Assembly: GCA_010909725.1 (NCBI GenBank)
Contig: JAACMV010000023.1
Location: 496,001-560,000 of the forward strand
Direction of reading: 5' to 3'
DNA length: 64,000 bases
From: Picochlorum sp. 'celeri'
Lineage: Eukaryota > Chlorophyta > Trebouxiophyceae
A program made the translations under genes and the position numbers. Below the pieces are notes generated by a model, which did no database searches, had not been told where the DNA came from, and saw only the letters and a list, made by a program, of their open reading frames with translations. Numbering within the stretch: position 1 is the stretch's first letter; each line of letters opens with the position of its first letter. This document shows, piece after piece, positions 51,457 through 56,888 of the stretch.

Positions 51457-53540
51457 ATGGACAAGTTCACTTTCCAAGTTTCGACGAAGAAGAATCCCTA
51501 CCAGGTGGGTCACGAGGGCTATAGTTTTGTTACAAAACATCTGAAATCATCTATAACTGGCTTGGATTCCGTTTGTGATGCAGAAACAAAAGGAGAGGGA
51601 AGAGAAGAGGAGAAAGGTATGTCTATGTGATATCATGGTTTGAAGACCGTGTCATGTTGGTCACTGGATGCTGCATGTATTTCAGAGAGATGAAGAAGAG
51701 ACTGAGAAAGTTTTGCAAGATTTTGAAAAGGACTTTGGTGGCGTGACACATGCATCTTCTGGTAAAGGTGGGGGACAGGTTCGGAAGGTCAGAAGAAAGC
51801 AGAGTGTCTTTGGATCTGATCAAGAAGATGAGTCAGAGGAAGACTGCAGACACGCAGAGCAGAAAGTGCATATTAATCCAGAGGTATGTAGATCTTTTGT
51901 GCCGTTGTTCGCGAGGATTTATCGAAGTATGTGATTGCTTTTTTTCTTCTTGAAGGAGCCCTTGAAAGCTCATCACATGGTATCAAAGGGTGGCAAAGTA
52001 AGGAAGATGGATATACTTTTGGAAAATTTGAAAAGGTATCGTATTTATCTGTGAAGTAGTTGTAATGTTCATGGTGGTATGAGGAGCAATTTGCCCATGT
52101 TGCAGGGAGCAAGCAGAGAGAGAAATGAAGAAAGATTGTGGAGATGTAGGCATCAAGGAGAGCAGAAAAGAAGTCGAGTCAGAAGAGTCGACAAACTTGG
52201 TTCTGAAACATTTGGCACCTGATATTGATGAGAGCACTCTTATGCACGAGTTTGGTCGATTTGGTCCTATTGCTAGTGTCAAAATTATGTGGCCACGCGA
52301 TGAGGAGCAGAGGCGAAGGGGTTGGAACACTGGATTCGTAGCATTTATGGTGCGCCAAGATGCCGTGAAAGCTTTGAAAGAGATGGATGGAATCATGTTT
52401 CACAATCATAGGCTGGGACTGGCATGGGGAGAAAATGTCCCAATACCAGCCGTCCCACTCTGGCCTCCTTCCTCTACTGCGGTGAACCCAGAATCGACAA
52501 GGAAAAGATCGATCGATGGGCCACCAATTAAGGAGAAGATCAATGGTAAAGGTCCGGAAGTGATCATTGAAGTTCCAAAAGACGAAAGGACAAGGTTCAT
52601 AATTGACGCCTTGGCTCTTTATGTGGTCAAGGATGGATTTGACTTTGAGCAGGCAATACTACAAAATGAAAAAGATAACGAACTATATAACTTTGTCTGG
52701 GATAAAAAATGTTCAGATCATCTGTATTATCGATGGAGACTCTGGAGTCTGTCAAATGGAGACTCATTAAGCTCATGGAAAGTAGATCCATTCCTAATGT
52801 TCAAAAATAGTTCATTGTGGGTACCCCCTGCTACCAGCCTTATCAAATCTCTAAAAACTAGTAATTCTACACTAGTTTCCAAGACTGAGCATGGGCTTCA
52901 ACCGCTTGGGACATTTGGGAGTGAACGCCTTAATGAATTACTTTCCAGCTTGACCTCTGAGAGAAAGTTGGTTGCGGATGCAATGCTCTTTATAATCTCT
53001 AACTCAGAGAGCTCTGTGGAAATATCCAGAATTCTGATGGAATTCTTCCTATCAAAAGACAGTAACGTGCAGAAGAAATTAGACGTGTTGTACCTTATAT
53101 CTGATGTGCTTTATAATGCATCAGCACCTGTACAAAATGCCTCGCAGTACAGGCCAATTCTCCAAGATGTGCTTCCAGACATGTTCGAGAGTCTGCAAGA
53201 GTGTTATTTAAATGCACCCAGTAGAATGACGCAAGAACATATTCGAAAACGAGTGCTTCGCGTGTTGAGGGCCTGGAATGGCTGGTACATATTTCAGGAA
53301 GAATATTTGCAAGGTCTGCAAGCAACATTTTTGAGAGGCCGGATAGATCCTTCTGGTGCAGTCAAAGTTATGGATGATCTTCCAAGCGATAGCGCTGTGC
53401 TAGAATACAAGAGAAAATTAGAGAAAATGAATATTGCGGAGATAGAGAACGAATGCAAGAAGAGAGGTGTCAGCAGGAAAGGCACTCACAGTGACATGAC
53501 CACTAGATTACTCACAGTCCAAACGTACATCAATCATTAG
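51457..53540 (+). CDS. U2 snRNP-associated SURP/RRM protein (U2SURP/SR140)
   Basis: Five exons: 51457-51504, 51584-51616, 51686-51883, 51956-52035 and 52106-53540; 597 residues. It opens with MDKFTFQVSTKKNPYQ and a Lys/Glu-rich helical region. RRM: TNLVLKHLAPDIDESTLMHE with RGWNTGFVAFMVRQDAVKAL. SURP module: FDFEQAILQNEKDNELYNFV and DHLYYRWRLWSL. A CID follows at about 370-510, and a SAP-like helix IAEIENECKKRGVSRKGTH ends the protein. This RRM-SURP-CID order is the SR140 architecture. The long RS tail typical of animals is missing. The stop is 9 bp from the convergent fusion gene's stop. Confidence 0.9.
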
Positions 53541-53549
53541 ATCTTATCG

Positions 53550-55917
53550 TTACATTGAAAAGTTTGTGCACCGCTCTATGCCATTAGATATTAGCGTGAC
53601 GAGTTCAGGGACTATCTCATCCACAGGTTTTGGTCCAGCAAACACTGTTGTTCCAGCTACAAGCGCATTTGCTCCCGCCTGCGCGACTAATGGAGCATTT
53701 TCAAGGTTGATACCGCCATCCACTTCAATGTTTATCTTACTATTACATCTGCGTAATGCTTCTACCTTGGGGAGTACGCTTGGCATGAATTTCTGCCCAC
53801 CAAAACCTGGCTTGACACTGAGAAGCAGAACGGTATCAAGTATGTTCTCATGAACCAAAGGGAAGATCATTTCTGCATCTGTTTCTGGAGCAAGTGCAAT
53901 GCCGACTTGCATTCCAGTTGATTTGACCTTGGAGATCAGCTGTCGCGCTTTCTGCAGATCATAATCCACTCCTAGGGTCTCAAAATGGAATGTAAATTGA
54001 CTTGCACCTGCCTTGTGCATATCTGCAGGATATTTAAAAAGTGCTTCAATTTCCATAAGCACGCAACAAGGACAATGAAAAAATTTTCATACCATCTACA
54101 TAATTTTGCGGATTCAGAACACACAAGTGGCAATCCAGAAATGCATCTGTATGCTTTCTCAGAGACTTGACAACTGGTGGCCCTATTGTCAAGTTTGGAA
54201 CAAAATTTCCATCAAAAATATCCACATGAATCCATTCAGATCCTGCACGATAGACGGCTGCAACTTCTTGGGCTAAATTTGCAAAATCTGCCGAGAGAAT
54301 GGAAGGTGATATGATTGGGCGGAGCCCTTTCACAGAAGCTGCCATTTTCCTCTTCCTTGATGCCACAGTTTGTCGGGAATTTGCCAAGCTGTGATACAGA
54401 GTCTTATATTGCTTCAAATAGGAGTCATATACTGCTTTCATATCTGGGTTAGGCTTTACCACCCTTTCTACGTGGACCATGGCTTTCACTGCAGATGATA
54501 CATCCTCGAATAAATTTGCTCCAACTGCAGCTAAGATGGCAGAGCCAAGGCACGGGGCATCAGATACCTTTGTGAGCACGAAAGGAATCTGGGATACATC
54601 GGCATGACACTGAAGCCACAGCTCCGACTTAGTTGGACCTCCAGCCACTACAATCGATTCTGGGCTGTAAGATCCTTTCCTCATGGCTTCAAGGACACAT
54701 TCCGTTCCATAGCAGACTGCCTCAATCAAAGAACGATATAGATGAGCACGTGTGTGGGCGAGGCTCAATCCAGTGATAGCCCCTCTCGATAAAGGATCAG
54801 TGAAAGGAGTTCTATTACCCTGAAAATGATCCAAACTGAGTACCCCGTCACATCCAGGTGCAACTCCCTCAGCCTCCCTGTTCAACACTTCATAATCTTC
54901 AGAGAGAAGCCTTTTCAACCATGCAAGGATGCTTCCCGTGGAGGTCTGACCACCTTCAACAATGTTCACGCCATCAATCACAGCATTTCTGTACGTTCCC
55001 CATACACCTGGTGATTCAAACATCCTGTCTGTACAGCCCAGGTGCAAATGACTGGACCCAGTGAGTAATGCCATCTGGCCTGGTTTAATGACCCCGAGAC
55101 CAATCATGCCAACAAAAGCATCTGCCCCACCTTGTGCAACAGGCATCCCTTGAACCAGTCCTAGTTCTGACGATGCCTTCTCGCTCAAACCACCGACAAT
55201 ATCACCAAGCTTGAGAACATCTTTGGGCCACTTTTGCATCAAATCAAAAATGCCCAACGACTGCAGCAGAGATTCTGGCCACCCTCTCTCTGCATCATAG
55301 TGCCAGCGGATGGTCATATTGTTGATTGAGCCGCACATTCTTCCAGTAAGATAGTGGTTCACATAATCCTGATACTCAACAATATACGCAGCCTGTTCAT
55401 ACACAGCAGGCTCATTCTCTTTCAACCATAGAGCTTTTGGAACCATCCATTCCGCCGAAACAGGCCCCATACCCCCATTATTAACCCGTAATGCGGGATC
55501 ATCCAGCTGTGATATACGATCAGCCTGTTCTGCGCTTCTCATGTCCATCCACAGTATCGCAGGCCTAAGAGCTACCCCAGCCTCATCCAGAGCAACAACT
55601 GTACAGCATGTTGTATCGACACACATGCAGGCTATATCAGAGGTATTAACTCTAGACGTCTCAATAACACCCCGGACAGCCTTCTTCAGGCTCTGCAACA
55701 TCACATGCAAGGAAAAGTATCAGCAAAACTCTTGACTCCACTGTTTCTCAGGACGCACCTCTATCCAATCAGATGGCGTTTGCTCCGCCCATGAAGGCTG
55801 AGGATACGTAGTATCATATGGGGCAGAATATACAGCCAATTGGCTCCCTTGTAGATCAAATAGGGAGGCTCGAAGGCTCTCAGTGCCTCCATCAATGCCA
55901 AGAACGTATTTACCCAT
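53550..55917 (-). CDS. Fused D-ribulokinase (FGGY) and ribulose-5-phosphate 3-epimerase
   Basis: Three exons: 55917-55759, 55692-54093 and 54022-53550; 743 residues. The FGGY kinase half (1 to about 495) opens VLGIDGGTESLRASLFDLQG and has ILWMDMRS, GGADAFVGMIGLGVIKPGQM, DHFQGNRTPFTDPLSRG and VVAGGPTKSELWLQCHADVS; the FQGNRTP motif is typical of D-ribulokinases. After a short Ser/Arg/Lys linker comes a complete 240-residue epimerase from Met503: ISPSILSADFANLAQEV, HVDIFDGNFVPNLTIGP, LDCHLCVLNP, SVKPGFGGQKFMP, NIEVDGGINLENA and ALVAGTTVFAGP. All metal ligands and catalytic acids appear intact. No transit peptide precedes the kinase, so the enzyme is likely cytosolic. Together the halves would turn D-ribulose into D-xylulose 5-phosphate. 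The fused frame is uninterrupted within exon 2. Confidence 0.9.
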
Positions 55918-56168
55918 GTCGTATCACAATTGCACAGCGCGCTAGACCACAATTTCGAAACTATTTAAATGATAGTCTACAATCGAGATGGATGTCACCC
56001 CATAATAGGCTTTTGGCCCCATCTTCCAATCTTTCATCTTCCGTAAAAAAGGCGAGCAAAGAATCGATGCTTGATATCAACTGCATGAATCACATCAACA
56101 GCTGATATGGCAGATGCTTTCTATATCAATTTTGTGTTACATCCATTCCTGATCCGCAGAAGAGACGG

Positions 56169-56888
56169 ATGAAGAACTGTATGCTTTCGAGTGTTTCGTC
56201 CACACAACTCCGTGGTTATCCCACGAGATGTGTCGCGCAGAAAGGCCATCGAATTAAGAGAAGTGTTATTGTTAGATGTGCCCAAAACGATGCGACTACA
56301 GATAGAAGGAGCATCATGCTTGCAGCAGGTGCCTTGAGTCTTACAACAGGAAGTCAGAAGCGAGCTTTTGCTGGGGATTCTCCTGATTTGACAATCACAG
56401 ATAAGGTATACTTTGATATGACAGTAGATGGATCAGATGTGGGAAGGATTGTGTTGGGGCTTTATGGAAATACAGTCCCTAAAACTGTGAAAAACTTTGT
56501 TGAACTCAGCACAGGGAGTCCAGGATATGGTTACAAAGGGTGTTCGTTCCACAGGGTGATAAAATCCTTTGTCTTGCAAGGCGGCGACTTTACTGCGGGT
56601 AACGGGACAGGGGGAAGGTCAATATATGGGAGGACATTCCCAGATGAGAATTTTGAAATACCTCATTTCACTGGCTGTCTATCCATGGCAAATGCTGGGA
56701 AAAATACCAATGGCTCACAATTTTTCATCACTCTTGACGAGACGAGTTGGTTGAATGGAAAGCATGTTGTGTTTGGAAAGGTTGTTGATGGCATGGATGT
56801 TGTGCGAACAATTGAAAACGTTCCCACCTCTCCTAGAGGGAATCAACCCCTCAGACCAGTTATTATTAAAGATTGTGGCGTTTTATAA
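56169..56888 (+). CDS. Thylakoid-lumen cyclophilin
   Basis: 239 residues, ATG 56169, single exon. Transit peptide rich in Ser/Arg, then a twin-arginine lumen signal ([14 protein letters not shown] at 45-58, AFAG cleavage region ~69). The cyclophilin domain has the active site [32 protein letters not shown] and [13 protein letters not shown], so isomerase activity is expected. Similar to the plant CYP20-2 type from memory, which assists thylakoid complexes. Divergent from the fusion gene with a 251-bp promoter. Confidence 0.92.

What the first reader, a model, noticed from the sequence alone, without database searches (positions are those of the whole stretch)
53550..55917. Single gene fusing D-ribulokinase to ribulose-5-phosphate 3-epimerase
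Both halves look complete. The kinase carries a FQGNRTP-type D-ribulokinase signature and the epimerase all family motifs. The join lies inside one exon, with no stop and a linker of about 15 residues, so it is not a frame accident. The two activities are consecutive (ribulose to ribulose 5-phosphate to xylulose 5-phosphate). The epimerase half starts with a Met like a stand-alone enzyme, hinting at a young fusion or an internal start. I do not recall this fusion being described.
Basis: partly seen in the sequence, partly recalled or inferred. Interest (0 to 1): 0.78.

Follow-up and report, generated by a model that had tools for sequence, protein, structure and literature searches.

The report
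Algal ribulokinase–epimerase fusion enzyme
One gene of this green alga really does join a sugar kinase to an epimerase, but the fusion is old and widespread in algae rather than new, and its epimerase half has a rebuilt active site that leaves its exact reaction an open question.

Summary
Window 55917-53550 (minus strand, three exons) encodes one 743-residue protein: an FGGY pentulose kinase, a short linker, then a ribulose-phosphate 3-epimerase (RPE) domain. The join lies inside exon 2; a second allele is intact.

"Young fusion" is wrong. Of 313 proteins scanned, 105 carry both halves, always kinase first, in green algae, Tribonema, Scytosiphon and diatoms. In a tree of 58 kinases the 38 algal rows form one group against 20 bacterial ones, support 100/98, suggesting one kinase acquisition and one fusion. 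Eight full-text searches aimed at it listed no description.

Two further points. (1) RPE has three cushion methionines said to favour epimerisation. At most one remains in 102 of 102 scorable fusions; the first two are kept in 160 of 161 scorable RPEs without the kinase (six fusion-type ones set aside). Catalytic His/Asp stay. (2) In the window clade's sister lineage the halves occur as separate proteins, probably a secondary split.

Best explanation: a cytosolic enzyme making xylulose 5-phosphate from D-ribulose. The substrate is unproven; a changed epimerase reaction is a serious rival.

The parts
53550..55917 (-). whole gene: FGGY pentulose kinase fused to RPE-family epimerase, 743 aa, three exons
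   Evidence: exon model; Pfam; second allele
55759..55917 (-). exon 1 (start of kinase, MGKYVLGIDGGTES; no N-terminal extension, so probably cytosolic)
55693..55758 (-). intron 1, 66 nt, GT-AG
54093..55692 (-). exon 2: most of the kinase, the linker and the first part of the epimerase; the join lies inside it
54520..55908 (-). FGGY_N + FGGY_C region, residues 4-444 (interrupted by intron 1)
   Evidence: residue-to-base arithmetic as
54313..54384 (-). linker, about residues 490-513, with the non-conserved Met503 (codon 54345-54343)
53640..54312 (-). Ribul_P_3_epim domain, residues 514-714 (interrupted by intron 2)
   Evidence: residue-to-base arithmetic as
54023..54092 (-). intron 2, 70 nt, GT-AG, inside the epimerase domain
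53550..54022 (-). exon 3: rest of epimerase, stop TAA
54214..54216 (-). Phe546, in place of the first cushion Met (HVDIFDG)
54121..54123 (-). Cys577, in place of the second cushion Met (HLCV)
53820..53822 (-). Leu654, in place of the third cushion Met (LLLSVKPGFGGQ)

Best explanation
Shown from sequence: an old algal gene family in which a bacterial-type pentulose kinase and an RPE of eukaryotic cytosolic type are one polypeptide, kinase first. Inferred: the kinase phosphorylates D-ribulose at C5 with ATP, and the attached epimerase converts the D-ribulose 5-phosphate to D-xylulose 5-phosphate, so that free ribulose (from ribitol or other polyols, or from dephosphorylated pentose phosphates) enters the cytosolic pentose phosphate pool. 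In the window's alga it would also be the only cytosolic RPE. The linker is very variable in length (3 to 133 residues by the profiles used), which argues against a fixed channel between the sites; the benefit would be co-expression and proximity.
For: Both domains complete. Kinase positions C82, C83, E134, D244, H268 resemble ribulokinases 3qdk and 3gg4, not xylulokinase 2itm (mapping by eye). Of 97 fusion rows 76 read CCEDH, 18 lack a letter at one or more of these positions and agree elsewhere, 2 read NCEDH and 1 SCEDH. Epimerase residues H542, D544, H575, D688 are present in 101 of 102 scorable fusions, the other having a gap. The window protein passes two NCBIfam RPE models (215.6 against 212.6; 218.1 against 165), and 7 of 8 other fusions pass the second of these. 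The two steps are consecutive (general knowledge). The own genome has one other RPE (C14/C18), which groups with the plastid Chlamydomonas RPE, and no canonical cytosolic RPE was found in a six-frame search. Algal kinases form one group, 100/98. Transcriptome (mmetsp) entries P0032, P0048 and P0066 carry both domains.
Against: No substrate is shown. No FGGY model listed passes its cut-off in the window or in eight other fusions. Bacterial relatives are not beside an RPE gene (none in 80 loci), and some sit beside fucose-mutarotase-like (9 of 80) and fuculose-phosphate-aldolase-like (7 of 80) genes, which would fit a C1-phosphate pathway instead. The methionine cushion is lost in every scorable fusion. 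In eight of eight other fusions the score is below the TIGR01163 RPE cut-off (156-208 against 212.6), while two of two canonical cytosolic-type RPEs pass (240.2, 238.1).
Confidence: 0.52

Rival explanations
1. The epimerase half has changed its job: with the methionine cushion gone it epimerises or isomerises a different ketose phosphate, made by the kinase half from its own sugar.
For: At most one of three cushion Met in 102 of 102 scorable fusions, against the first two kept in 160 of 161 scorable RPEs without the kinase. The cushion is said to prevent isomerisation and favour epimerisation (PMC9978339, passages seen). Different algal groups show different replacements (FCL, MSL, FAM, VAL, CAM). 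Scores below the TIGR01163 RPE cut-off in 8 of 8 other fusions. Parachlorella and Tetradesmus have the fusion and also a canonical cytosolic-type RPE.
Against: Acid/base Asp and metal-ligand positions are kept. The window protein passes both RPE models and 7 of 8 other fusions pass the looser RPE subfamily model NF004076. The window's genome showed no other cytosolic-type RPE. I saw no mutant data on these Met.
Confidence: 0.28
2. The kinase acts on another ketose (L-ribulose, D-xylulose or a tetrulose), and the epimerase half acts as an ordinary RPE on passing ribulose 5-phosphate.
For: Pattern C-C-E-D-H lies between 3qdk L-ribulokinase (A-C-E-D-H) and 3gg4 (C-S-E-D-H) (by eye). Best-scoring curated kinase model is ribulokinase PRK04123, below cut-off. 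The own genome has another FGGY kinase on C15/C27 that resembles plant/cyanobacterial XK1/SePSK sugar kinases (recalled, by eye, not tested).
Against: A fusion of unlinked steps is less likely to be kept so widely.
Confidence: 0.13
3. Gene-model artefact: two genes or two transcripts.
For: Met at the join in the window and 3 of 7 near relatives.
Against: No stop and no TGTAA/AATAAA at the join, both alleles alike, 105 proteins with both halves, three transcriptome entries with both.
Confidence: 0.02

Closest known systems
Cytosolic ribulose-phosphate 3-epimerase of plants (for example rice-type 1h1y, Henckelia P0206)
   Same: Closest named stand-alone relatives of the C-terminal half, about 45-52% identity; same catalytic His/Asp
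   Different: Stand-alone; keeps the methionine cushion, which the fusion lacks
Uncharacterised bacterial FGGY kinases (Pelagibius, Kiloniellaceae, Denitrobaculum; also Gemmatimonadetes and deltaproteobacterial MAGs)
   Same: Closest named stand-alone relatives of the kinase half, 56-57% identity; 21 of 27 rows with the same C-C-E-D-H positions
   Different: Not fused; no RPE gene nearby in 80 loci
AraB L-ribulokinase (3qdk) and the FGGY pentulose kinase 3gg4/3l0q
   Same: Same fold family and similar specificity positions
   Different: Window kinase below the listed curated cut-offs; C82 as in 3gg4, C83 as in 3qdk
Other RPE fusions seen (RNase III-RPE, DUF5672-RPE and others)
   Same: RPE domain in a longer protein
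   Different: Other partners; no sign that they are related as fusions

Membership tests
FGGY carbohydrate kinase family | FGGY_N and FGGY_C domains above Pfam cut-offs | tested here: met
   133.3 and 128.8 bits against 28.8 and 27
D-ribulokinase (EC 2.7.1.47) | phosphorylates D-ribulose | not testable with these tools
   needs assay
FGGY pentulose kinase TIGR01315 (to which ribitol/D-ribulose kinases belong; recalled) | curated model cut-off | tested here: not met
   270.5 bits against 408.7
L-ribulokinase AraB | curated model cut-offs (NF003154, TIGR01234) | tested here: not met
   304 against 428; 243.2 against 583.25
Xylulokinase XylB | curated model cut-off (TIGR01312) | tested here: not met
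   290.1 against 380.25
Ribulokinases in general | specificity positions of ribulokinase type | tested here: inconclusive
   C82 C83 E134 D244 H268 resemble 3qdk and 3gg4, not 2itm. The five positions are named for GlpK in PMC3245297; carrying them over to the window was done by eye, and the RbtK logo itself was not seen
Ribulose-phosphate 3-epimerase | PF00834 and curated RPE models | tested here: met
   window 220.3 against 21.1; 215.6 against 212.6 and 218.1 against 165. Of 8 other fusions, 0 pass TIGR01163 and 7 pass NF004076
Ribulose-phosphate 3-epimerase | catalytic Asp pair and metal-ligand His | tested here: met
   H542, D544, H575, D688
Ribulose-phosphate 3-epimerase | three conserved cushion Met | tested here: not met
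   F546, C577, L654 in the window; role of the Met from passages of PMC9978339
Ribulose-phosphate 3-epimerase | activity on ribulose 5-phosphate | not testable with these tools
   needs assay

The most novel reading that the evidence does not exclude
The fusion is an undescribed two-step algal enzyme in which the epimerase half, freed of the methionine cushion, carries out a reaction other than ribulose 5-phosphate 3-epimerisation on the product of the kinase half. It would be a hidden sugar-salvage step shared by green algae, brown algae and diatoms, and split back into two genes in one lineage.
Probability: 0.27. Interest if true: 0.75.

Novelty: new variant of a known kind. Interest (0 to 1): 0.5.

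Why it matters
A conserved bifunctional enzyme across much of algal diversity, listed in databases as "glycerol kinase", "carbohydrate kinase" or "hypothetical", would fill a gap in algal pentose metabolism. Its fused epimerase is also a natural experiment on the methionine cushion of the RPE active site: acid/base residues kept, cushion replaced in several different ways.

Tried and rejected
Young fusion: rejected by breadth. Internal start at Met503: not conserved. In one search the second query was a wrong ORF, so only the window epimerase counts there; one search repeats the search with a profile on ORFs of at least 120 aa. Viral carriage of the kinase: one viral-contig scan with P0063, no relative. 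Two independent fusions: not favoured, but the RPE tree alone cannot exclude it: fusion-type RPEs are one group at only 83/56 or 79, and the alternative with the Trebouxiophyte half beside canonical RPEs is not rejected (p-AU 0.378). Bacterial neighbourhoods as a guide to substrate: mixed, no clear answer. tRNA and Rfam scans of the window: nothing.

Full report
OBSERVATION. On the minus strand, ATG at 55917, exons 55917-55759, 55692-54093 and 54022-53550, TAA, two GT-AG introns of 66 and 70 nt, 743 residues. Pfam finds FGGY_N (4-251), FGGY_C (262-444) and Ribul_P_3_epim (514-714). The join is inside exon 2, with no stop. The genome (27.4 Mb, 30 contigs) holds a second copy on C3; the other families searched also came in pairs of contigs, so it is probably a two-haplotype assembly. 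The second copy differs by 5 bases in 2461, gives one residue change and has the same introns. No TGTAA or AATAAA lies near the join; one TGTAAC at 53554 overlaps the stop codon.

HOW COMMON. A database search with the whole protein, one with epimerase words among long proteins and one with the epimerase alone, each listing its best 120, gave 312 proteins. With the window, 105 of 313 carry both halves, all kinase first; some of these are fragments or gene calls that miss exons (for example P0128, P0129, P0194-P0196). Named owners include Nannochloris, Chlorella, Micractinium, Parachlorella, Tetradesmus, Raphidocelis, Monoraphidium, Chlamydomonas, Volvox, Pleodorina, Dunaliella, Haematococcus, a pedinophyte, Cymbomonas, Tribonema, Scytosiphon and Nitzschia (their placing in algal classes is general knowledge). 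Automatic JGI names such as "ribulokinase/ribulose-phosphate 3-epimerase" show that annotation pipelines see it; others say hypothetical protein, carbohydrate kinase or glycerol kinase. Three mmetsp transcriptome entries (P0032, P0048, P0066) carry both halves.

ORIGIN. In a careful tree of 58 kinases (58 of the 138 rows; seven long-branched bacterial rows were among those left out), the 38 algal rows, four of them kinase-only, are one side of a branch against 20 bacterial ones, support 100/98. Two of the 20 (P0091, P0094) are unnamed and were counted as bacterial from the tree. In that larger quick tree all 27 bacterial rows and 8 unnamed kinases also stand together (98). The best named stand-alone relatives are bacterial kinases at 56-57% identity, mostly Alphaproteobacteria but also Gemmatimonadetes and deltaproteobacterial MAGs. 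Transfer from a bacterium to an algal ancestor, and spread to stramenopiles, are inferences; the trees are unrooted. The epimerase half is of eukaryotic cytosolic type: its nearest named stand-alone relatives are plant cytosolic RPEs at about 45-52%, and the window genome's other RPE, on C14/C18, groups with the plastid Chlamydomonas RPE. Fusion-type epimerases form one group with weak support (79; 83/56, 60 rows chosen from 125), and an alternative is not rejected (p-AU 0.378). A single fusion therefore rests mainly on the kinase tree, the constant order and the shared loss of one residue described next.

ACTIVE SITES. The kinase carries C82, C83, E134, D244 and H268 at the positions that decide specificity, which I carried over by eye from the five GlpK positions named in PMC3245297 (second part of its Results read) and the PDB alignments. 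They resemble ribulokinases 3qdk (A-C-E-D-H) and 3gg4 (C-S-E-D-H), not xylulokinase 2itm. In one search, 76 of 97 fusion rows read CCEDH; 18 lack a letter at one or more positions (15, 2 and 1) and agree elsewhere; 2 read NCEDH and 1 SCEDH. The 14 unnamed kinase-only rows (algal and bacterial-type together) all read CCEDH, and 27 bacterial rows read CCEDH (21), SCEDH (4) and NCEDH (2). No FGGY model listed reaches its cut-off in the window, eight other fusions or two bacterial relatives. So D-ribulose is an inference from the fused partner and these positions.

The epimerase keeps catalytic and metal positions H542, D544, H575, D688. But the review PMC9978339 (passages seen) describes three conserved methionines as a proton-free sulfur cushion that prevents isomerisation and favours epimerisation. 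In the window these are F546, C577 and L654. In one search, 102 fusions could be scored: FCL 52, MSL 27, FAM 11, CAM 3, VAL 3, FAL 2, and FCM, TAL, YAM, FGM one each; 3 more had gaps (two FC-, one -SL). None keeps more than one Met, and the second is lost in all. RPE proteins without the kinase (stand-alone or joined to other domains): 160 of 161 scorable ones keep the first two Met; the exception, P0265 (FCL), is a 217-residue piece that looks fusion-derived; 8 more had gaps (-MM 3, --L 3, -CL 2). Before this count I set six kinase-less proteins aside as fusion-type (P0193, P0197-P0200 from the tree, P0203 by eye); all six read FCM, and with them the count would be 160 of 167. Most kinase-less proteins are plant sequences found with the window as query, so they are not an even sample. 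Eight of eight other fusions tested fall under the TIGR01163 RPE cut-off, but seven of the eight pass the looser RPE subfamily model NF004076 (P0037 fails); two of two canonical RPEs pass both, and so does the window. This is the most notable new point: either the cushion is not needed, or this half does something else.

SPLIT LINEAGE. Kinase-only proteins P0053, P0055, P0058, P0063 and P0073 form the group nearest to the window's clade (P0073 only in 32), and epimerase-only proteins P0193 and P0197-P0200 form a group inside or beside the same clade. In these epimerase-only proteins a Met followed by a small residue (MSA, MAE, MGE) stands before the domain, and in two of them (P0199, P0200) further residues without likeness come before it, as expected of real starts. 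A secondary split is likely. But these are machine gene calls, and one such call (P0001) reads straight through intron 2 (sequence printed), so a junction intron could mimic a split. I could not fetch the contigs. A further kinase-only protein, P0056, lies elsewhere among the fusions.

WHERE IN THE CELL. One search lists fusions whose start is held. The named green-algal ones and Tribonema begin 0-6 residues before the kinase, except P0048 (13), so cytosol is likely; unnamed P0018, P0043 and P0046 have 34, 18 and 33. Sixteen diatom-type ones (P0095 and P0098 named Nitzschia in the listing; the rest placed by tree) have 12-70 extra residues, most with a hydrophobic signal-like stretch by eye. 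No targeting predictor was available.

CONTEXT. The six-frame searches of the own genome showed no other cytosolic-type RPE. Besides the fusion there are FGGY_C matches on C20/C5 (glycerol kinase-like by eye), C15/C27 (XK1/SePSK-like by eye, recalled) and a weak one on C10/C16 below cut-off. In bacteria no RPE gene lies near the kinase in 80 loci. The clearest recurrent neighbour is a dihydrolipoyl acyltransferase (E2) cluster in 48 of 80 loci, whose member in L016 passes the acetoin dehydrogenase E2 model; L016 also has E1-like genes. Clusters with a fucose-mutarotase-like (9 loci), a DhaK-like (8) and a class II aldolase-like member (7) recur in fewer; the tested members score below their curated cut-offs. 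These do not point clearly to D-ribulose.

LITERATURE. Eight were aimed at the fusion or its kinase; two searches found no paper, the others listed none on this fusion, judged from titles and starts of abstracts, with listings capped (25 of 3,052; 20 of 31). Searches were for background. Passages or sections were seen of PMC3245297, PMC9978339 and PMC2688927 (the last concerns Leishmania). Subscription papers are mostly not held, so "undescribed" holds only for this library.

VERDICT. Real, ordinary in its parts, old rather than young, apparently undescribed in the open literature searched, and with a family-wide active-site change that makes its second step worth testing.

Noticed in passing
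P0053, P0055, P0058, P0063, P0073 and P0193, P0197-P0200: Beside the window's clade the kinase and the epimerase occur as separate proteins, probably a secondary split of the fusion.
   Followed up: partly
diatom-type fusions, for example P0076-P0089, P0095, P0104, P0118, P0192: Most have an N-terminal hydrophobic signal-like stretch (by eye), and most of their linkers share a HAIA(S/A/R)(L/I)RGG motif; why a kinase would enter the secretory route is unexplained.
   Followed up: no
window 52083-53550: A convergent plus-strand gene with RRM, Surp and CID domains has its stop at 53540, only 9 bases from the stop of the fusion gene, so the two 3' ends probably overlap.
   Followed up: no
window 56148-56888, plus strand: Divergent neighbour: cyclophilin-type peptidyl-prolyl isomerase, with an N-terminal extension that could be a plastid targeting peptide (by eye).
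   Followed up: no
P0136, P0142-P0144, P0156, P0157 and others: A separate, repeated fusion of RNase III and dsRNA-binding domains to an RPE domain among database proteins (listing; P0136 and P0157 checked).
   Followed up: partly
bacterial loci L016, L052-L054 and others: The bacterial kinase often lies near an acetoin-dehydrogenase-like E2 gene (cluster in 48 of 80 loci) in a pathway I could not name.
   Followed up: partly
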